Assembly: GCF_032362555.1 (NCBI RefSeq)
Contig: NC_083529.1
Span: 4,836,001 to 4,900,000 of the forward strand
DNA length: 64,000 nt
Direction of reading: 5' to 3'
Source: Amyelois transitella
Lineage: Eukaryota; Arthropoda; Insecta; Lepidoptera; Pyralidae
Under the pieces are notes generated by a model. It worked only from the letters and a program-made list of their open reading frames with translations, made no database searches and was not told where the DNA came from. Position numbers and translations under genes: made by a program. Below are positions 7,554-47,162 of this stretch, in pieces. Position 1 is the first letter of the stretch, and the number at the start of each line of letters is the position of its first letter.

Positions 7554-10500
7554 CTAATTAGATTTAATCTTTTGTTTGCTACTAAAACGTAACACATTCT
7601 TTACTACGAAATAAATCGCCGTAACACAGACTATTAAACCGAATACTAGAAACGACACGACGTAAGCCAATAATTCTAGTTCATAATACGCGGCCCAAGA
7701 TAAGTTTGCGCCCGCGGCCCGTAGATGGCGCGCACCGCCGTGTCGAAGGACGTATTCCGCCCACCATATTGCTCGTTCTAAGGATGATTGGGGCTGGTCG
7801 TACATTATTGAGCGAAGTTTTTCTATATTTTGTCGGTATCTGAAAAAAGAGATTTAAATGAGTTAATTTATTTATTTCATTATTATTTATTAGATTACTT
7901 TAATTGCCTAGTGAACTACCTAATATTATGCAGTCGATAATGTGAAAGACAACTGGAAGATACACTCATTAACATCAGTTTACATAAATGCATATATCAC
8001 ATCTATATCCCTTACGGGATAGACAGAACCAACAATCTTGAAAAGGTCGAAAATCAATGGCACGGTCAGACGTATGGCTTTATAATGGAATTGATATTAA
8101 AATAGTGATAGGTTGTAGCTCAGCGCCTACAAGACAAATCCGAAGTTTTTTAGCCTATCTCTTAGTCGGCTTATACGATATCTATGGGAAAGAGATGGAG
8201 TGATTTTATTCTTTAGTGCCGGGAACACGACACACTTAGTTTAAAATGGCTAAATCTCTATAGTTCCATACAGTTTTTTTTTCGTTTTTCTTAATTATTA
8301 TATTAATCGTAGAGCTAAGTAATATCTATCTTCAACCTCCGTTAACTTCAAATCAAATAAAATATATCGACCAGTTTCAGTCTATTTTACATTAGTCTTC
8401 ACTATCGCAAATATTTCCAAAAAATATCCTGTTTTCTGCCACGGCATAGTTTTGGAAATTCTTACATATTTTAGCAGCAAAATCCATTCAGTAGTCTCGG
8501 TTATACGTTGACAAAAACGTTAGCCATATTTTACTGTTACAGGTACACACAAAAGAATAACATAACAATAACAATACTACTATAAAAGACATAACAATAA
8601 CAATGATCAATGTTTTATAAACGAACATTGATTTACACGCACCTTTTATCATTAATCACGGTATCAATAGCTTTCCTAAATACATTGGCATCCATCGTCA
8701 TGATATCGATTCGAACTCCGATACCAAGGTCAACATATCGGTCCACGTTGTACCATTGGTCACCGATCATTGGTATACCAACAGCTGGAACTCCTGCTAG
8801 TATTGTTTCATCAGTGGATTGGAGACCACCCTGGGTAATGAATAGTTTGATGTTTGGGTGCACTGAAAATATAAATTATTCAAGTATACGAGTACCTACC
8901 ATTGCAATGGTTTTTCATATAAGTATCATAGAGGCTCTTAAGGATGAATAATTTTCCCCGTTTTTTTTTTCATTTTCCATTATTACTTCGCTCCGTACTT
9001 AGCTTACTTACTTCGCTTAGTACTCAGTCCATTTTTTCCGATTTCTATGGAACAGGTACCACATTACATTAAATAATATCCGTTTGTTAGAAGCTAACGA
9101 ATTTCTTCAACTGAGTTGCACTCGCGTAGGACTTAATATAAGTCTCTTTACAAAAATATGAAAGCAAAACTACTGAAATATATTAATCATATTCGCATTT
9201 TTTGGTTGTACCCGCAATTTTCAGGGCTCGTGATCTGCCAAAGTTTGTATAGTTTATTTTTAACACAAAATATACTAAAGATAGATTTATATAAGATAGA
9301 AATGAATAACTTACTGAGTAGGTCTCTCTGAGGCAACCATTTAGCTATCATCACATTTTTAGGTAAATCTGGAATGTCTTCCGTGTGCCATTTCCATATT
9401 ACATTGTATGGCAGCTCAGCAAATACTTTGACGAATGTTCTTATTGAATTTTCTGGAAACATTGAAGGGTCTACGTTTGTGCCAAAACTCATGTATATGA
9501 CGCCTTTTGTGGACGTATCCAAGTATGATTTCAGTTCCTAAAAGGAAAATAAAAGTTGAGAAATTATGTGTTTAGGTCTATTACGTTCTAAGACACAAAG
9601 TAATTGTATCTATTCATATTTTATAGAACCGGTAAAAGTTCCCGGCACTCCACTCCATCACTTTCCTATGGATGTTGTAAAAGTGGATTGGGATTCTTTT
9701 TTAGGCGATGGGCTAGCAACCTGTCACTATTTGAATCTCAGTTTTATCATTAAGCCAAATAGCTGAGCGTGGCCCTGAATGGCCACGCTCAGCTATTTGG
9801 CTTTTCTTATACTTTTTTTTTAATTCTTTTCAGGACTGTTGGCTCTGTCCACCCCGCAAGGAATCTATATTCCTTGCGGGGTGGACACAACTACGTCTAT
9901 ACGTAACCATATGTATGTATGTATGTATTCATATTTTAACTTATTAAAATTTTAATATTCATCTTTAATAAGTTAATCATAAAAATGTGTAGCTTATATT
10001 CTTATTTTAAACCACTGTAAACTGTCTTTGGAGGTCACTTTTCACTGCTTTACTTATGGTTAACTGTTAAAAATATAAGAGGAAATAAAATCAGACACCC
10101 ACATCCACATCACAATTATGATCCATTTCAGATGCGTTATTATTTTCATAAAAAAATAATTTGAAAAAAACAATAAATAGTATATGGACGTTATAGTATA
10201 TTATATGAACTCTATGCATACAAACACAAAGCATAATATTCACTAATGCTTAAATTGATTTATCATTTTGAAGTTTGTGTTGCTGTGCGAAATTATTACG
10301 CAATATTAAATATAAGACTGTTATTTATTTTCAGTCGCTTTATTGCACAACTTGCTAAATAAAGTTACGAAATAAAAACATTTTCTTGAATTTAGAAATA
10401 ATTATTTTTATACATACATACAAACAAACATTATATATAATCATGTCAATATCCCTTGCGGGATAGACAGAGCCAACAGTCTTGAAAAGACTGATAGACT

Positions 10501-11528
10501 ACGTTCAGCTGTTATGTTTCAGTTTATTATATATGTATATACATTTTTTTTTTTATTTAATAAAACATTACAACAACAAGAGTATGTTCATGGTAACAGT
10601 TTTTAGTAACTGCATAATATTATATCTGTGATTCTGTATGGCCAAGACAAAGCAAATAGTTTTGAAAATATTTTGCATACCAACAACGTACCTTAGACAA
10701 ACTTTGGACCGGTTTTATATGCATAGCTCCAAGATATACAACATTAGGCGGCACCGGTCTATTGAACTCCCACACTGGATGAACATTTAAAAATAACATA
10801 TCCACATTATCACATAACTCACTCACTGCTGGTACATCATCTCCTACAATTCGTCTCAACATTTCATTCTCCTCTTTCTCATAGCTATAAGTAACATATT
10901 GTCTCACAGCAAAATTGTACAGTTCCATGAATCTGTCATAAATTGTCATGTTAACAATTTTTCGACTGTAAAGATTCGGATGCAGAATTGGATGCATCAC
11001 CGCTCCAACTGATTCCAGATTATACGGTGATGACCCAAAAGAGCTCACTTGTATCACTGGTGCTTTAAAAACATGAGAATATACTAATGCTGTTCTCTGA
11101 TACGCTTCGATAAGCAGAAGATCAAAATGTTGCGTTTTATCATTCATCAACTTTTTGATAGGCTCCGAAGCAAGATGTTCCTTCATAATATTTGTAAAAA
11201 GAATTGTCAACATTTTTGCCATTGATTTTGTATCATAATCAACCGATGGTTCCATATTTACTTGATATTCTTCTGGAATGTATTCCACCCAAGGCCTGTA
11301 TGAGATATCATGCATGTCAATTTCAGTTAAATTAGTTGGCCCTCCTCCTTTGGGAAACATTGGATCTGTTGTTATTAAAATAACTTCATGACCGCGATTC
11401 ACTAATTCAAGAATCAAAGGTCTAAATACCACTTGATGACTGATCGATGGTGTTGGAAACACCGCCAGAATTTTTGCACTATCCACATAAACTATAACAA
11501 CACTAATCACTAATAGATTAACCTTCAT
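7554..11528 (-). CDS. UDP-glucosyltransferase A (UGT33-like), four exons
   Basis: Exons on the minus strand are 11528-10692, 9537-9315, 8862-8643 and 7839-7554 (837, 223, 220 and 286 bp). They join in frame with GT-AG borders to 521 aa. The first ~18 residues are a hydrophobic signal peptide. His31 in PTPSISHQV fits the catalytic base. Exon 3 holds the UGT signature (FITQGGLQSTDE ... GDQWYN) that binds the nucleotide sugar. Exon 4 encodes the membrane helix and a short cytosolic tail ending KIKSN, a KxKxx ER-retrieval pattern. The family transfers glucose from UDP-glucose to small lipophilic acceptors in the ER lumen; the actual substrate is unknown. The position of the vertebrate catalytic Asp reads Glu (FDLLLIEA). 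Introns contain SINEs at 7985-8236, 9636-9930 and 10411-10515. The nearest relative here is gene E. The orphan first exon B lies directly upstream and may share exons 2-4. Confidence 0.93.
7985..8236 (-). mobile_element. SINE in intron 3 of UGT A
   Basis: Diverged antisense copy, recognisable by TATCCCTTACGGGATAGACAG, AATAGTGATAGGTTG, CTTAGTCGGCTTATACGA and GCCGGGAACACG. Near full length. Confidence 0.75.
8933..8992 (-). mobile_element. Helitron family 1 internal fragment
   Basis: Lies in intron 2 of UGT A. Matches, in reverse, the GGGGAAAATTATTCATCCTT and ATAATGGAAAATG segment of the family-1 Helitron at 63051-63312. Both ends are missing. Confidence 0.55.
9636..9930 (+). mobile_element. 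SINE carrying two internal hairpin duplications
   Basis: Sense copy in intron 1 of UGT A, from a degraded GTTCCCGGCAC head to a TATGTATG tail. Two perfect inverted repeats interrupt it. Arms 9752-9774 and 9781-9803 (23 bp, 6-bp loop) begin from its AAGCCAAATAGCTGA block. Arms 9846-9864 and 9869-9887 (19 bp, 4-bp loop) begin from its CACCCCGCAAGG block. In each, a SINE segment is followed at once by its own reverse complement. Confidence 0.85.
10411..10515 (-). mobile_element. SINE, 5'-truncated
   Basis: Antisense 3' portion only: a (TACA)n-like tail, then TATCCCTTGCGGGATAGACA and the GTCTTGAAAAGACTGATAG hairpin block, ending near GTTCAGCTG. In intron 1 of UGT A. Confidence 0.75.
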
Positions 11529-11579
11529 TTTTTGTTGTTTTTTGTATCTTTACTAAAATAAGTAATATTAAATGTAGTG

Positions 11580-11586
11580 TTTTATA
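11580..11586 (-). promoter_or_regulatory. Possible TATA box upstream of UGT A exon 1
   Basis: TATAAAA on the minus strand, about 52-58 bp upstream of the A start codon. It lies in the 535-bp gap between cassette B and exon 1 of A, so A exon 1 could have its own promoter. No transcript evidence. Confidence 0.35.
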
Positions 11587-12109
11587 CAGGTTATAAAAGA
11601 TAACATCACTATCACTTACGATTAGATTATTCACATATTGAAATAACTTTTCTACCACAGTAATAATAATATATTGAGAAAAATAAATTGAGATCAAAAG
11701 TCTTAAATAAAAACTATAACTACACTAACATTTTTGGTAAATTCTAACTCATTATTGCGTAAAGAAATATATATATATATCGTTAACATTATCACATTAT
11801 CGCTAAAACACGTGCTGTACAATTGTGGCAAATGACATCACTGACCGTATACTATACACTGAATGAATCGTTAAGCCCGCTCCACACTCACTCGAGAACC
11901 ACGCGAGAAAGCGAAAAAACCACGAGAGGCATGATTGTGGAACGCGCATAATAAATAACAGTCAATACAATATTTTCATCGTTGTCATTCTCTGTTAGGT
12001 AGTAGTTTATGTAGGTTAGTAGGTTTTATCGAAGGCATCTCGAATATTTTGCAGTAGTATATGATCAAAAGTGTACACATTTAATATACTTGCTTTCTAA
12101 GTAACGTAC

Positions 12110-12946
12110 CTGTACTAATTCCTTCTGTGGTTGAATATGCATTCCTCCTAAATATAAAACATTGGGTGGTACAGGTCGATTTAAATCCCAAAGTGAATGG
12201 ATGTTAAGAAATAGCATACCTACATTATCGGCTAAATTACTCAATGGTGGCATATCAGATCCTACAATTTTTCTCAGCATTTCATTTTCTTCCTTTTCAA
12301 AATTATGTGTGATGTACTGTCTAATTAAAAAATTATAATATTCCTTAAACTTTTCGTAAAGTGTGATATTAAGAGATTTTCTACAAAAAATGTCAGGATG
12401 AAGAACCGGGTGCATCACCGTTCCAACTGTCTCCAAATTGTATAGAGATGGTCCGAAGGAACTAATTTGTATAACTGGTGCTTTAAAAATGTAAGAATAA
12501 ACTAATGCAGTTCTCAGATATGCTTCAAGAATAATGAGATCAAAATGTTGTGATTTGTCATTAATCAATTTTTGAACTTGCTCGGAAATAAGTTGTACTC
12601 TAACCATTTTCGCAAAAAGGTTTACGTACAATTTTGTCATTGTTATTACATCGTGTTCTATGTTTGGTACCATATCACTTTTGTATTCTTCTCTGACGAA
12701 GGTCAGAATAGATTGGTAGGATAGGTCATGTGTATTTATTTCTGTTAAATTAACTGGACCTTCTCCATTGTGGAAGAGTGAATCTGTTGTGATTAAAACA
12801 ACCTGATGACCACGATTAACCAACTCAAGAATTAAAGGTCTAATTGCCACTTGATGACTTATCGATGGAGTTGGAATCACGGCTAAAACTCTCGCACTAT
12901 TCACATTTATTATAACAGCACTTATAACGATTAGAAAAGTTATCAT
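12110..12946 (-). CDS. UGT first-exon cassette B (alternative first exon candidate)
   Basis: An intact 837-bp frame, 279 codons, exactly the length and phase of UGT A exon 1. It opens with a hydrophobic signal peptide (MITFLIVISA...), has His31 in PTPSISHQV, and ends ...ELVQ at a good donor (CAG|GTACGT). The frame continues 24 codons upstream to 13018, but the internal ATG at 12946 lies immediately before the signal peptide, as in the paralogues. The 581 bp to the next gene contain no exon 2, 3 or 4. The simplest reading is that B splices over A exon 1 to the acceptor at 9537 and shares exons 2-4, giving another 521-aa enzyme with a different acceptor-binding half, like the first-exon design of vertebrate UGT1A. 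It could instead be an orphan exon of a broken gene, but the frame and donor are undamaged. Confidence 0.75.
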
Positions 12947-18323: not shown

Positions 18324-23437
<5,114 letters not shown>

Positions 23438-39749: not shown

Positions 39750-42700
39750 ATGTATAAAGTAATTTTGTTGTTGGTCGTTATTTTTGTAACCAAACAAGAT
39801 GCTGCTAGGATATTGGCTGTGTTTCCTGCACCATCAATTAGTCACCAAGTAACTTTTAGACCATTAACTCACGAATTGGCAAAAAGAGGTCATGAAGTTG
39901 TAATAGTCACCCCTGACCCTGCCTTCCCGAAAGATAAAAAGCCTGATAATCTAACAGAAATAGATGTTCATGATTCATACAATCTTTGGAGAGAAAAAGT
40001 TTTACAAGGAATCAACGGTGATATGAAGAACCAAATAAAGTTTTTGTTTGAATTGTCGATGGAAGTATTTGAAATGCAAATGAATTTCGAAGAAGTGCAG
40101 CAGATTATTAAGAAGAATACCGAACCATTTGATTTATTAATAATAGAAGCTTGTATGTTGCCAGCTTTAGGATTTTCTCATATATACAAAGTGCCTGTTA
40201 TACAGATCAGTTCGTTTCTACCATTTTATTCTAATATTAATACAATCGGAGCTGTAGACCATCCTCATTTATATCCAGTAATGAGTACACAGAAACTTGA
40301 CAATTTGAGCACGATTGAAAAAATTAATTTGTACTATGATCATTTTGTCATACAAAATGTTGTCAAAAATGCTGAATTAGATATGGACAAGGTGATCAAA
40401 AGAGTATTTGGTTCTGATACACCTCCTCTCTCTAAGTTATATAATAATGTAGATATGTTATTTCTAAATACGTTTCCAATATGGGACTCCAATCGCCCAG
40501 TACCACCAAGTGTCCAATATTTGGGAGGAATACATGTAAAACCTGTTAAACAATTGCCAGAAGTGAGTATGTCTTTAAAATTTTAAAGTTCATACACATA
40601 GAGCATCATTACATACTTATAAATAGTGATAAGCCTTGACTGTTGATTATTTATTTATGTTTATCATTAAATCTAATCCAATATATTTTTAAGGACTTAA
40701 AAAAATACCTGGACTCTTCAAAGCATGGAGTAATATATATTAGTTTTGGCACAAATGTGGATCCTTCAACGCTTCCTCCAGAGAAGATACAAGTGTTATT
40801 GAATGTTCTATCTGGATTGCCTTACGACGTTATATGGAAGTGGAACCAGGATGTACTACCTGGTAAAAGTGATAACATCAAAATTTCGAAATGGTTGCCA
40901 CAGTCTGACTTACTGGGTAAGTTGTTCTTTATTTGAATTCTTTAGTTTTGATATTTTTCGATGTAGTTGTGAGTTCAGGGAATAAGTGTGTGATTTTATG
41001 TATTTATGTATGTATACTTATTATTATTGTGCTTGGGTTCTAGATGTGCATTACCCTGGAAACCAGATAAAGAAAAAAGAAATATAACTTTTACTTTTTT
41101 TTTTAAATTTGATTATCAAGGTTTCAAAGAAAATTAATGCTGCCAAATCTTTAATTTTTTAAATTCCATAAAAATGCTGAGCATCTGCTGGCTTAGTTTT
41201 AAAATATTGGGAAGTTTTTGGTTTTAAATAGGTGAACCGAATAGATTTTTTTTTAAAGATTCGATTGTTTAAGAAATGTTTTACTTACAGGACATCCAAA
41301 ACTCAAATTATTCATCACGCAAGCGGGCTTGCAATCAACTGATGAAGCTATTGTAGCGGGTGTACCACTTCTTGCAATTCCAATTTTAGGAGATCAATGG
41401 TACAATGCGGCTATGTATGAACGACATAAGATTGGGGTCAAGATTGAAATGGAAAACCTTAGTGAGAGGACTCTTAAGGAAGCATTACATGTTCTTACTG
41501 TGGATGATACGTAAGTTTCATTTAATATATCTTAGAATTTAATTTCTACAAGATAAAGACATTGGTTTGACATACCCGAAAAGGAAGCTACTGAGAGTAA
41601 TATAGGCGTAGACAAGGATTAAAGATAAGTGATTTCTATACTTTAGTTGTACTTGTAATACCCTTGTAATATCAAAAGGAGGAAAATATCGTGAGAATAG
41701 GTCCAAAGGTTGCATAGGTCAAATGTCGCTTCGTGCTAAATATATATCCAATCCTGGATCTTGGCGAAAAACGGCAACGGGCAAATCTAAAAGGAAGAAG
41801 AAGCAGAAATACACGATTTTTTGGAGAACAAATCATAATAATTTATATTACGATATCCATGTTACAAGAGTGACGTCCTGTTTCGAAAATACCTCAGGCA
41901 ACTTAAAGCATATATCTCTAAATTAAGTATCTTAATTGTTGAATTGTTCGGCTAAATAAATAAAGTGATAACGTATTTTTTATGAAACATGTTATAATGT
42001 CCTTTAAGAGGTAAGGCAATAAAGATAAAAGACATTGACATCATCATATTAAATGTTCATAACTATATGTTATACGATAAAGATTTTTAATTTAGATATC
42101 TAATTAACTAGGGTGGCGCAGCGACCCGAAATGAATTTTGTCTTCAAAACAAATTTGGTCATTTAAATCTGCTTTGTTTTTTAATCATACTCTTTGCTAG
42201 GAGTATGATATAGTCGCTTCCAGAACGCCTGTTAGTCAGGATCTGTTTTGATCTTGGATTATGACCAAGTCATTACCTAAGAGTTATTCCTAAGTATTAG
42301 GAACTATGTGGTACACTTTTTTACGTCATTAGAGCAGCGCCTCTGACCACTAAAAATCAAACTAATCAAAAAAAAAATCAATAAAATAATCAAACTAATT
42401 AACAATTTAAAAGAGTATATAAATGCATGGCCGTGCATCATTATTTTTTAGTCAGGTACCTTTGAACGTTCCGCCTAACGCTGTAGGTATTGATCAGATT
42501 GTCTGTGCTGACATAAATAATCATATCTATTAATTAATAACTGATTAATATAGAAAAAAAAAAACATTTTTCAGTTACCGCCAGAACATAATAAGATTCC
42601 GATCTGTCATCTACGACCAACCACAAACTCCTTTAGAACGGGCAGTGTGGTGGACGGAGCACGTTCTGCGCCACGGCGGCGCGCGCCATCTACGATCGCC

Positions 42701-42863
42701 AGCCGCAAACTTACCGTGGACTGTGTACTATGAAGTAGAACTAGTGGCTTATGCACTTCTAGTAGTTACAAGCGCTATATTTGTGTTCGTGTACCTAGTT
42801 TTGAAAGTAAGGAGACTGATAGTTAGTAAAATGAATGCTAATATAAAACTTAAATATAGTTAA
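39750..42863 (+). CDS. UDP-glucosyltransferase D (UGT33-like), four exons
   Basis: Exons 39750-40562, 40694-40916, 41291-41510 and 42575-42863 (813, 223, 220 and 289 bp) join in frame with GT-AG borders to 514 aa. I chose the ATG at 39750 because it opens the signal peptide; the longer frame upstream has no other ATG. His32 sits in PAPSISHQV; Glu replaces the usual Asp in FDLLIIEA. Exon 3 has the UGT signature LFITQAGLQSTDEAI, with Ala where the other copies have the first Gly of QGG. Exon 4 gives the membrane helix and the tail KLKYS (KxKxx). Role: ER sugar conjugation of lipophilic compounds, substrate unknown. Closest relative is C, on the other strand 25 kb away, with 163 bp of exon 4 perfectly identical. 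Intron 3 (1064 bp) has no identified repeat. AATAAA at 43007-43012. Confidence 0.93.
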
Positions 42864-43975
42864 TGTGATAATTATAGATTTATTACTTATAAAAACTCTG
42901 AATGTTTTGAATAACTATATGGTGAATTTTATAAAAGTACCCATTAAAAGCTTTGCTTGTTCAATGTAAGCTTTCAATGAAATAGTCAAAAAACAGTAAA
43001 AATGAGAATAAAGTATTCCGAATTCATTTTTGTAATATCAGATAAAAAAATCTCTGATGCGGTCAGCAGAAACCAACAAAATACAAAAAAATGTTTGAGT
43101 AAGTTCCTTTACATTAGACAGCGGGAAAAAGGATAGTGTCTTTGGATGATAATGTGAAACTCTAAACTGAAGTCGGTAAAATTTCTAAAACCTTTTCATA
43201 AGTGTTTGTTATACACGAACAATTTCCTGAAAACCGCATCAAAATCGGTTAAGCGTAACCCGAGAAAATCGCAGACAAACGTAGGAACATCCATACATAC
43301 AGACATCTGCACATAACAGCATACCTAATCAAACTGATTACCACCTTTTTTGAAGGCGGTTAAAAAATGCCGAAGACTGGCTAAAGATAATTGTATATTT
43401 TTCTAAGATTTATATCGAACAATAAAAATAATTGACAAAAACAAGTGCAAAACTTTAAATGCTCTCATAATGTTTACTAAACGTACCACGTAGTAATAAA
43501 CCCATTGAATATAAAGTTATTCGAGAATAATTGTAATTTATTCGAATTGTTTTATCAAACACTAATGTCGAACCCTTTTAGCGTGTGCTACTGATACGCA
43601 TATCAATAATAATTTACTGATTAAAATTGTTTGGGTAATTCCACAATTTGTTATTGATTCTTTGGTTATATTTTGTAAAAATATACAATTGTTTATTTCT
43701 TAATATAAAAAGAAGTATTTTAAATAAACCTTGATCATAATTTTTTCTACCCTTAGTTTTTTTTATCACGAAAAGGATTTCAATAACCAAATGCCCTTCC
43801 ATTATAATTATATTGGCATGAATATTATACATAGCTATATTAGCATTTTGTCTCAGTCTCTGAAAAGGACACTTTTCCCCTTCGGCCACTTTCTAGCTAG
43901 AACCTAGAATCTACTTATGACCACGAAATTTTGCTCACATACAATGTCTACGATATTTGTTGTTTTTACATATGT
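42864..43975. other. Intergenic between UGT D and E
   Basis: Contains the probable polyadenylation signal of D and an old repeat at about 43200-43380 (AAAACCGCATCAAAATCGGT ... TTTTTTGAAGGCGGTTAAAA) of a kind common in lepidopteran transposon relics. No gene recognised. Confidence 0.5.
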
Positions 43976-44260
43976 ACTTACATACATACGTACATATCAT
44001 CACGTCTATATCTCTTGCAAGTATGTACATATCATATCTATATCCCATGCGGGGTAGACAGAGCCAACAGTCTTGAAATGACTGAAAGGCCACGTTTAGC
44101 TGTTTGCTTAATGATAGAATTGAGATTCTAATAGCGACAGGTTGCTAACCCATCGCCTAAAAAAAGAATCCCAACCCAATCCCTTAGTCTCCTTTTACGA
44201 CATCCGTATGATGAAGTAGTCCTATTCTTTTTTCTATCTGTGCCGGGAACCACACGACAC
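43976..44260 (-). mobile_element. SINE, full length with duplicated tail end
   Basis: Antisense. The terminal block CACGTCTATATCTCTTGCAA is followed after a TATGTACATA linker by a second copy (TATCTATATCCCATGCGGGG), so the 3' end is partly duplicated. The head GCCGGGAACCACACGACAC is at the right. It ends about 105 bp before the UGT E start codon and may lie in its promoter. Confidence 0.85.
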
Positions 44261-44365
44261 TTATTTTTATGTAGATAAAAACAATAGGTACCTATTTTCT
44301 ATCATCACTGGAATGTGTTGGGCGTTATCATTGTTGACTCAGTATCAAATCAACCTTTCGCCGAA

Positions 44366-47162
44366 ATGGCGGAATTGTTATTTTTTATTATAAGTGCTTT
44401 TATATTAAGTGTTGATAGTGCAAGAATATTAGCAGTGTTTCCGATGCCGTCTATTAGTCACCAAGTAGTGTTTAGACCTTTAGTTCTAGAATTAGTTAAA
44501 CGCGGTCATGATGTTGTTTTAATTACTCCAGATCCAAGTTTTCCTAAAGGAGGTGGGCCTATCAATTTAACAGAAATAGATATGCATGACATAGCATATA
44601 AACCTTGGATCGAATACCTTCCAGAAGAATACAAAGATAAGTTGATGTCTATTCATACATTGAGTATTAAATCTACGTTAGAAATAACCGCACTTATAAA
44701 CACAAAAGTTGTAGAAGTCCAACTTCTATCGGAACTAGTTCAAGAGTTAATAAATGATAAAACGCAGCATTTTGATCTATTGCTTGTTGAAGCTTGCCTA
44801 AGACCAACATTAGTATTCTCACATATTTTTAAAGCACCAGTTATCCAAGTCAGTTCTGCTGGTCCCATTCCATACAATTTGCAAACAGTCGGAGCCCCGA
44901 TGCATCCAATTCTTTATCCGTTTGCATACAGCAAGAAGCTTTCAAATTTAACGCTCTATGATAAGTATATGGAACTTTATAACTTTTTGATAAACCAATA
45001 TGTGACGTATAGGAATGAAAAAATCGAAAATGACATGCTTAGAAGGACCTTAGGTTCGGATGTGCCTACAGTGAGTGAGCTGTCTGAGAATGTAGATATG
45101 TTGTTTTTAAATGTTCATTCTCTTTGGGAATCAAATAGGCCAGTGCCACCAAATGTTTTATATTTGGGAGCTTTGCATATAAAGCAAGAGAAAGAGTTAC
45201 CAAAGGTAATTTTACTATTTATCTTTTTTTTAACATTAGAAAGTTGCAGTTTTTTTATTAACAGCTACAGTATGCTTTTTCTATTTATTTAAAAATACAA
45301 TATAGCAAATAATCACTAAACTTGGGATTCTTCTCTTAGGCGATGGGCTAGCAACCTGTCACTATTTGAATCTCAATTCTATCTTAAAGCCAAATAGCTG
45401 AGCGTGGCCTATCAGTCTTTACAAGACTGTTGGCTCTGTCTGCCCCGCAAGGGATATAGACGTGATTATATGTATGATATGTATGTAATCACTTTATATC
45501 TCATTTCAGGACCTTAAATCTTATTTAGACTCTTCAAAAAATGGCGTAATATATATGAGCTTTGGTACAAATGTAGATCCTTCAATGATTCCGCCGCAAG
45601 TGATTTCGTCATTTGTCGATGTGTTCGCTGAGTTGCGCTATAACGTTTTGTGGAAATGGCATACTGAAGATGTACCTAGGCTACCAAAAAATGTTAAAAT
45701 TTCAAAGTGGCTCCCCCAAAGAGATCTTTTAAGTAAGTTTATTATAGAATAAACAATTTTTATCCAGATAAAACTCATAAGATGTTCAAAACTAATGAGC
45801 AGCTATGCGCCAAATTCCAAATTGTTCCAAAAAATGGTTTCAGCATTTCATGGTGGTGGTTGGTCAGTCATATCTTGTTCTCAATTCCATCATCCATACT
45901 AATATTATAAATGCGAAAGTGAGTTTGTTTGTTTGTGACCTCTTCATCTTATCTCCTAGAGTATCTACAGTAGATACTCTAGGAGATAAGATGATTTTTT
46001 CTCTTACTGCGTTTTAGGTGCTGCAGGGCAGTACTGAACCAGTCTTTTTGAAATTTCTCATATATAAAATTGTGTCTTTGTCCCATGTCTTTTTCCAAAC
46101 TCTTTGGAAAAAGACATGGGGTATTTCATCCCAGTACAAATTGTTGGTCCCGTGGGATTTGCGAAAAACCTGTATATTTTTGTAAGTGGCGCTAAATTCG
46201 GGCAGTAGAAGCTACGGACAAAATCTACATTAACTATTAAGCTGAAGATGGCATAGCATTTCAGTCTTTTCGAAATATCAAATCTGTCTACTCCGTAAAG
46301 TAACACGTGTTATGTTTATTTAAATTAAAGTATATTTTTAGTGCATCCAAACGTGAAATTATTTATAACCCAGGGTGGTCTTCAATCTACTGATGAGGCT
46401 ATAGCAGCTGCAGTGCCTCTTATCGGAATACCAATGCTTGGGGATCAATGGTATAACGTCGAAAAATATGTTCATCATGGTATTGGTGTGAGACTAGATA
46501 TTGAAACTATTGATGCTGACAAATTTAAGGACGCCATTGATACTGTCATTAATGATAAAAGGTTAGTACCTATATTGATTAAAATTCCTGTCGTGGGCCT
46601 GCTGGAAGAAATTTCTCTAGAAATAAGTAGTGCCCTTGTATTGAATTTCTCTTTATTTTAAGTTTTTTTTTGCTTATTTTTCTTGTTGTACATAAATATG
46701 GTTTTTAATACCTACCACCCCCAAGTCATATAAACGGTAACCGCTCCGTTAAAATGATTCAGAGTTTCTGCTGTTAATGGGAGAATGCATTTAACTGTTA
46801 GAGGGAAAACACAAAGATGAGAGAAATAAGCAATCGCTGACTTTATTAAACCTTAAATTATTATCATTTCAATCCACAGTTACCTCGACAATATACGAAA
46901 GCTGAAATCACTAATGTATGACCAACCTCAAACGCCATTAGAAAAGGCTGTATGGTGGACTGAGTACGTTTTAAGACACGGAGGGCGCCATCTACGTTCG
47001 CCGGCCGCAAACCTACCTTGGACTGTATACTATGAAATAGAACTACTGTTTTATTTACTCCTCTTTGTGATTGGGGCGCGCTTTTTATTAGTATATTTAT
47101 TGTTTAGGTTGTATAAATTTGTTAGAGGTTGGCTGAGTAAAAGGAAATTAAAGACAAATTAA
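44366..47162 (+). CDS. UDP-glucosyltransferase E (UGT33-like), four exons
   Basis: Exons 44366-45205, 45510-45732, 46342-46561 and 46880-47162 (840, 223, 220 and 283 bp) join in frame to 521 aa. The ATG at 44366 directly precedes the signal peptide (MAELLFFIIS...); the frame extends upstream only from a GTG. His32 is in PMPSISHQV; Glu lies in FDLLLVEA. Exon 3 carries KLFITQGGLQSTDEAI and GDQWYN; its next codons (MHPNVK at the 2/3 junction) ally it with gene A rather than C/D. Exon 4 has GGRHLRSP, one Ala shorter than the paralogues' GGARHL, then the membrane helix and tail KLKTN (KxKxx). Same expected ER role. Intron 1 holds a SINE, intron 2 a Helitron-like element with two perfect hairpins, and intron 3 begins with a LINE-tail repeat immediately after the donor. 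Confidence 0.93.
45317..45489 (+). mobile_element. SINE 3' part in UGT E intron 1
   Basis: Sense: AACTTGGGATTCTTCTCTTA, GGGCTAGCAACCTGTCAC, GCAAGGGATATAGACGTGAT, (TATG)n tail. 5'-truncated, same orientation as the gene, ending 20 bp before exon 2. Confidence 0.85.
45893..46215 (+). mobile_element. Helitron-like family 3 with two perfect hairpins, UGT E intron 2
   Basis: Starts TCCATACTAATATTATAAAT after an A and proceeds GCGAAAGTGAGTTTGTTTGT. Inside are arms 45944-45967 and 45971-45994 (24 bp, 3-bp loop) and arms 46082-46099 and 46103-46120 (18 bp, 3-bp loop), both perfect. The end region GTGGGATTTGCGAAAAACCT and TGGCGCTAAATTCG matches, reversed, 49195-49415. The 3' border is unclear. Confidence 0.65.
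46570..46690 (+). repeat. LINE 3'-tail repeat
   Basis: GTGGGCCTGCTGGAAGAAAT and TTCTCTAGAAATAAGTAGTG match 38786-38900. It begins only nine bases into intron 3 of UGT E, so the insertion nearly touches the splice donor. Confidence 0.65.

What the first reader, a model, noticed from the sequence alone, without database searches (positions are those of the whole stretch)
7554..12946. Two first exons, one set of downstream UGT exons: likely alternative first-exon usage
Cassette B (12110-12946) and UGT A exon 1 (10692-11528) are both exactly 837 bp, both start with a signal peptide and both end in phase 0 at a good donor. Only A has exons 2-4. B is uncorrupted, so it is probably expressed by splicing to the acceptor at 9537. 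That would give two acceptor specificities with one UDP-sugar domain, as in vertebrate UGT1A.
Basis: partly seen in the sequence, partly recalled or inferred. Interest (0 to 1): 0.7.

Follow-up and report, generated by a model that had tools for sequence, protein, structure and literature searches.

The report
Two-headed insect detox enzyme gene
An insect (probably moth or butterfly) detoxification gene appears to have two interchangeable front halves that share one back half, the arrangement known from the vertebrate UGT1A locus, and a larger version with eight front halves lies further along the same chromosome.

Summary
Exons A (11528-10692) and B (12946-12110) are intact 837-bp UGT first exons on the minus strand, in phase 0, with good donors; only one exon 2-4 set (9537-7554) follows them. 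The window has no N, and no exon 2-4 remnant was found beside B. B joined to exons 2-4 matches PF00201 end to end (277 bits; A 265.6).

A and B are sisters (96/92); pairwise dN/dS is 0.23; B's donor ranks second of 206 GT sites. New support lies outside the window: 115 kb further on, eight intact first exons and one decayed relic precede a single exon 2-4 set. A TATA box sits near the ATG in 7 of 10 heads of the two loci, but not in B.

Alternative first-exon usage is likely (0.8), with promoter choice selecting the head as in vertebrate UGT1. No RNA was available: the B-to-exon-2 junction and the two acceptor specificities are inferred. The mechanism is known, and alternative exon usage is reported for silkworm UGT46A1/A2 (PMC9209448), so this is a new member of a known kind.

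The parts
12110..12946 (-). Alternative first exon B (837 bp, 279 aa, phase 0 end)
12104..12109 (-). Donor of B, CAG|GTACGT
   Evidence: rank 2 of 206 GT sites
11580..11586 (-). TATA-like box (TATAAAA) 58 bases before A's ATG; candidate core promoter of A
   Evidence: pattern chosen after looking
10692..11528 (-). First exon A (837 bp, 279 aa, phase 0 end)
10686..10691 (-). Donor of A, AAG|GTACGT
   Evidence: rank 1 of 206 GT sites
9538..9539 (-). Exon 2 acceptor AG
   Evidence: rank 1 of 135 AG sites
9315..9537 (-). Shared exon 2 (223 bp)
8643..8862 (-). Shared exon 3 (220 bp), with the UGT signature motif (read by eye against the pattern quoted)
7554..7839 (-). Shared exon 4 (286 bp with stop), hydrophobic tail segment

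Best explanation
One UGT gene with two alternative first exons. Transcripts that start upstream of B keep B as first exon and splice its donor (12109) over A to the exon 2 acceptor (9537); transcripts that start at A's promoter use A. A has no dedicated splice acceptor in front of it, so in B transcripts it is removed with the intron; promoter choice therefore selects the head. Each head carries the leader and the acceptor (aglycone) domain; the shared tail carries the UDP-sugar site and the membrane anchor. B arose by tandem duplication of a first exon at this locus after the gene split from its inverted paralog D. Shown from sequence: intact heads, sister relation, constraint, splice signals, no private tail. 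Inferred: transcription of B, the junction, promoter choice, two acceptor ranges.
For: Both heads intact, phase 0, good donors. B plus exons 2-4 matches PF00201 positions 5-498 of 499 at 277 bits, A 265.6. No exon 2-4 remnant beside B, no N in 294 kb. A and B are sisters, 96/92. NG86 dN/dS A-B 0.23, with 0 of 1000 bootstraps at 1 or more. Of 206 GT sites between B's ATG and exon 2, A's donor ranks 1 and B's 2; the exon 2 acceptor ranks 1 of 135 AG sites. A second locus has eight intact heads and one relic before one exon 2-4 set, with recent head duplicates under constraint (F5-F6 dN/dS 0.157, F7-F9 0.39). A TATA box near the ATG in 7 of 10 heads of both loci.
Against: No RNA evidence. B has no TATA box in its last 300 bases (nearest TATAWA at -623), and neither have F1, F9 nor the four single-head genes C, D, E, G. 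B departs at 5 of 61 sites invariant in the other 12 heads (A 2 of 58; F1 also 5 of 61) and has a longer branch than A (0.43 against 0.20). B's own branch dN/dS is about 0.26 but 5% of bootstraps reach 1 or more. Other AG sites score 11.4 and 8.4 against 12.2 for the exon 2 acceptor. The shared tail of A is not slower than D's tail (end branches 0.38 and 0.16; dN 0.138 and 0.113).
Confidence: 0.8

Rival explanations
1. B is a first-exon relic that lost expression recently and has not yet been broken.
For: No TATA box found for B, 5 of 61 otherwise invariant sites changed, longer branch; 5% of bootstraps of B's own dN/dS at 1 or more. F8 shows that heads do die in such loci.
Against: No stop or frame break in 837 bp, donor intact. 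In simulations of neutral decay an open B with its ATG has a chance of 0.18 after 0.05 substitutions per site, 0.0095 if frameshifts at an assumed rate are added, so death could only be recent. B's Pfam score is above A's.
Confidence: 0.12
2. B is transcribed but does not reach the shared tail: it ends early, or splices to a site just before A's ATG, giving only the 279-aa front domain.
For: An AG site 24 bases before A's ATG scores third (8.4), and read from B its first codon is a stop; an ATTAAA lies in the 581-bp spacer.
Against: The exon 2 acceptor scores higher (12.2); no AATAAA in the spacer. A front domain alone would lack the sugar site.
Confidence: 0.05
3. Assembly error removed B's own exons 2-4.
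For: Tandem paralogs are prone to collapse, and no reads were available to check.
Against: No N in 294 kb; 33 contigs for 327 Mb; flanks of A and B do not align, so nothing near-identical is at hand to collapse; the layout recurs in the F array.
Confidence: 0.03

Closest known systems
Vertebrate UGT1 (UGT1A) cluster
   Same: Tandem variable first exons, each with its promoter, spliced to one set of common exons; head = acceptor domain, tail = sugar-donor domain (PMC3325998, passages; PMC9209448, passages).
   Different: Two heads here (eight in the F array) and three common exons, not four; an insect gene whose heads arose by local duplication in this genome, so an independent origin is likely. 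Splicing is shown for UGT1, not here; B's promoter is not identified.
Silkworm UGT46A1/UGT46A2
   Same: Two lepidopteran UGT products said to result from alternative exon usage (PMC9209448, one sentence seen, citing Ahn et al. 2012, which is not held).
   Different: Which exons are swapped was not seen; relation of UGT46 to these genes was not tested.
UGT33 clusters of Spodoptera
   Same: Head-to-tail UGT clusters with three coding introns (PMC11087754, passages), as in the genes here.
   Different: There the passages seen describe separate genes with identical exon-intron structure and no shared exons; the supplement was not read.
Mammalian UGT2A1/UGT2A2 and avian UGT2
   Same: Pairs or groups of UGTs sharing exons 2-6 with private first exons (PMC6209164, passages).
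   Different: Vertebrate genes with six exons; not compared by sequence.

Membership tests
UDP-glycosyltransferase family (PF00201) | Full-length match above the curated cut-off | tested here: met
   A-tail 265.6 and B-tail 277 bits against a cut-off of 19.5, positions 5-498 of 499
[quoted passage not shown]
   Exon 3 translation read by eye against the pattern quoted
UGT1-type variable-first-exon locus | Several intact first exons upstream of one set of common exons, same strand, compatible phase | tested here: met
   Two heads here, eight plus one relic in the F array
UGT1-type variable-first-exon locus | A separate promoter for each first exon | tested here: inconclusive
   TATA box near the ATG in 7 of 10 heads, not in B, F1 or F9; no start-site data
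UGT1-type variable-first-exon locus | Each head is spliced to the common exons in mRNA | not testable with these tools
   No RNA data; splice-site ranks only
UGT1-type variable-first-exon locus | Heads give different acceptor specificities | not testable with these tools
   A and B differ most in residues 91-120 (8 of 30 identical); no assay
UGT33 | Three coding introns and long first exon | tested here: met
   Four coding exons as the passage of PMC11087754 says of UGT33 (three introns); the long first exon is from this window only
UGT33 | Amino-acid identity to named UGT33 members above the naming threshold | not tested
   No named insect UGT sequences on hand

The most novel reading that the evidence does not exclude
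This insect has twice, independently, evolved a UGT1-like variable-first-exon locus on one chromosome (two heads here, eight in the F array). The unit of growth is a promoter-exon 1-donor cassette, so new acceptor heads with their own control are added without copying the sugar-binding half, in convergence with vertebrate UGT1.
Probability: 0.6. Interest if true: 0.55.

Novelty: new member of a known kind. Interest (0 to 1): 0.42.

Why it matters
If confirmed, counts of insect UGT genes need care: a catalogue that asks for full gene models would miss or merge heads (one here, seven in the F array). Because all heads of a locus share one tail, it would be a natural test of whether acceptor specificity follows exon 1 alone, and an invertebrate parallel to the vertebrate UGT1 locus in an animal that may meet many plant toxins.

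Tried and rejected
Considered and rejected. (1) Equal 837-bp length as evidence in itself: the 14 complete heads are 813-840 bp and A and B are sisters. (2) Private exons 2-4 for B nearby: none found. (3) An origin of B before the A-D split, suggested by A being 63% identical to D and 60% to B: the tree pairs A with B, 96/92. (4) Alignable promoters of A and B: no match in 800 bases upstream or 1000 downstream. (5) A close relative of head B in the PDB: none at E 0.001 by phmmer. (6) Papers on arrays of UGT first exons in insects: ten searches and term look-ups in PMC9209448, PMC2633020, PMC7079503, PMC5105290, PMC8010143, PMC11087754, PMC12588728, PMC6429375 (no term found), PMC7781194 and PMC8956072 gave the UGT46A1/A2 sentence, general remarks on alternative splicing of insect UGTs and other splice variants, but no such array. 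Subscription papers and supplements were not seen, so this does not show absence from print.

Limits: NG86 dS above 1 is near saturation (in one search capped at 3.3). The TATA pattern was chosen after reading the sequences. Genome searches score only the best candidates and are lower bounds. Exon 1 of the outgroup H is partial.

Full report
The window is contig C25, 4836001-4900000, of a 327-Mb genome in 33 contigs. A (11528-10692) and B (12946-12110) are intact 837-bp first exons on the minus strand, both ending in phase 0, with donors AAG|GTACGT and CAG|GTACGT. Exons 2-4 are 9537-9315, 8862-8643 and 7839-7554; either head plus this tail encodes 521 aa. Both products match PF00201 at positions 5-498 of 499, A with 265.6 and B with 277 bits.

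B has no tail of its own that I could find. The A-B spacer is 581 bp and gave no match to exons 2-4 of A, D or F; the B-C spacer gave two weak ones, E 0.24 and 0.39. The next exon set upstream belongs to gene C, whose exon 1 is at 17740-16913. There is no N in the window or in the 294 kb around it.

Looking outward, I scanned C25:4796001-5090000 with heads A and B and exons 2-4 of A. There are six exon 2-4 sets, 14 complete first exons and one partial. Four sets (C, E, D, G) have one head each; the A set has two; the set at 5018169-5014909 has eight on the same strand (F1-F7 and F9, 5018492-5037399) and the partial one, F8. The 14 complete heads start with ATG, have no stop and have a GT donor in phase 0 at the homologous place. 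F8 keeps about the first 259 bp, 74% identical to F7 and F9 in DNA, and no more was found: a dead head in such a locus does decay. Whole-genome searches (first exons: 25 matches and 26; exon 3: 28; lower bounds) show the other first-exon matches one to one with an exon 3 match nearby (on C4, C8, C13, C14, C17 and C25), except C12, where two partial first-exon matches precede one exon 3; I did not resolve it. Exon 3 matches on C19, C16, C14:333561 and C17:3892715 have no first-exon match at this sensitivity.

History. In a tree of 15 first exons A and B are sisters (96/92) with D next (97/98), and the eight F heads form one group (92/94, not starred). So B arose by first-exon duplication at this locus, separately from the F array. 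Recent F pairs show what is copied: F5/F6 align upstream of the ATG over 362 columns at 81%, F7/F9 over 178 at 81% upstream and 417 at 80% downstream; F5/F6 align downstream only in short or shifted pieces. Sequence in front of the ATG, exon and donor moved together. For A and B the flanks no longer align. C pairs with E, and A/B with D, in both trees, and the order A/B, C, then E, D with opposite strands is mirrored, so an inverted duplication of a two-gene block probably came before B.

Constraint. NG86 dN/dS is 0.23 for A-B, 0.157 for F5-F6 and 0.39 for F7-F9; of 1000 bootstraps each, none, none and 1.6% reach 1. B's own branch is about 0.26 and A's about 0.20, but 5% of bootstraps of B's value are 1 or more, counting replicates without positive dS. 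In simulated neutral decay the chance of no stop and a kept ATG is 0.18 after 0.05 substitutions per site, and 0.0095 with frameshifts at an assumed rate. Against this, B departs at 5 of 61 sites invariant in the other 12 heads (A 2 of 58, F1 5 of 61; G left out of this count), and its branch is longer than A's, 0.43 against 0.20. Nor is the shared tail slower than D's: end branches 0.38 and 0.16, dN 0.138 and 0.113.

Splicing and promoters. With weight matrices from these neighbouring genes (first-exon donors of A and B left out; A's exon 2 acceptor left out), A's donor ranks 1 and B's 2 of 206 GT sites between B's ATG and exon 2. The exon 2 acceptor ranks 1 of 135 AG sites with 12.2; the next score 11.4 (inside exon A) and 8.4 (24 bases before A's ATG, where the first codon read from B is a stop). 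Donor positions +1 to +6 are 71% identical among eight heads (A, B, F1-F5, F7) and +7 to +36 are 36%. TATAWAR lies at -90 to -45 in 7 of 10 heads of the two loci (A, F2-F7), in none of B, F1, F9, and in 0 of 4 single-head genes; the background is 5.0% per segment; with close copies collapsed 5 of 7, P 6e-6, and 0 of 2000 shuffles reach it. I chose the pattern after reading the sequences, so these values are optimistic. They favour one promoter per head in general; B's is not identified.

Mechanism. The likeliest reading is that of vertebrate UGT1: promoter choice sets the first exon and its donor joins the common exon 2. A and B differ most in residues 91-120 (8 of 30 identical; the other full blocks 15-23 of 30). 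That this part lines the acceptor pocket, and that the invariant His31 is the catalytic base, are recalled; no structure was made (not accepted).

What is known. UGT1 has variable first exons, each with a promoter, and common exons (PMC3325998, passages). [quoted passage not shown] 2012, which is not held. PMC11087754 (passages) describes UGT33 clusters of three-intron genes. [quoted passage not shown] I file this as a new member of a known kind, with the F array as the stronger exhibit.

Noticed in passing
L009:4909-9310, L010:124-6766, L011:605-7399 (C25:5014909-5037399): Eight intact UGT first exons in a row on one strand before a single exon 2-4 set: a larger UGT1-like array than the one in the finding.
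   Followed up: yes
L011:5104-5325: F8, a first-exon relic keeping about the first 259 bp inside the array.
   Followed up: partly
window:7554-17740 and 39750-47159: Mirror order A/B, C then E, D on opposite strands with C-E and A/B-D as closest pairs: probable inverted duplication of a two-gene block.
   Followed up: partly
G000:C12:6213652-6217235: Two partial first-exon matches before one exon 3 match: a split exon 1 or another multi-head gene.
   Followed up: no
window:18324-21072: Open frames that look by eye like trypsin-type serine protease exons (18324-18827, 20779-21072) with a reverse-transcriptase-like frame (18674-19798) between and overlapping them.
   Followed up: no
window:6730-6920, 8000-8220, 9630-9870, 10440-10510: A short repeat-like motif (ccttgcgggatagacagagccaa..., variants on both strands) recurs between the exons; looks by eye like a dispersed SINE-type element.
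   Followed up: no
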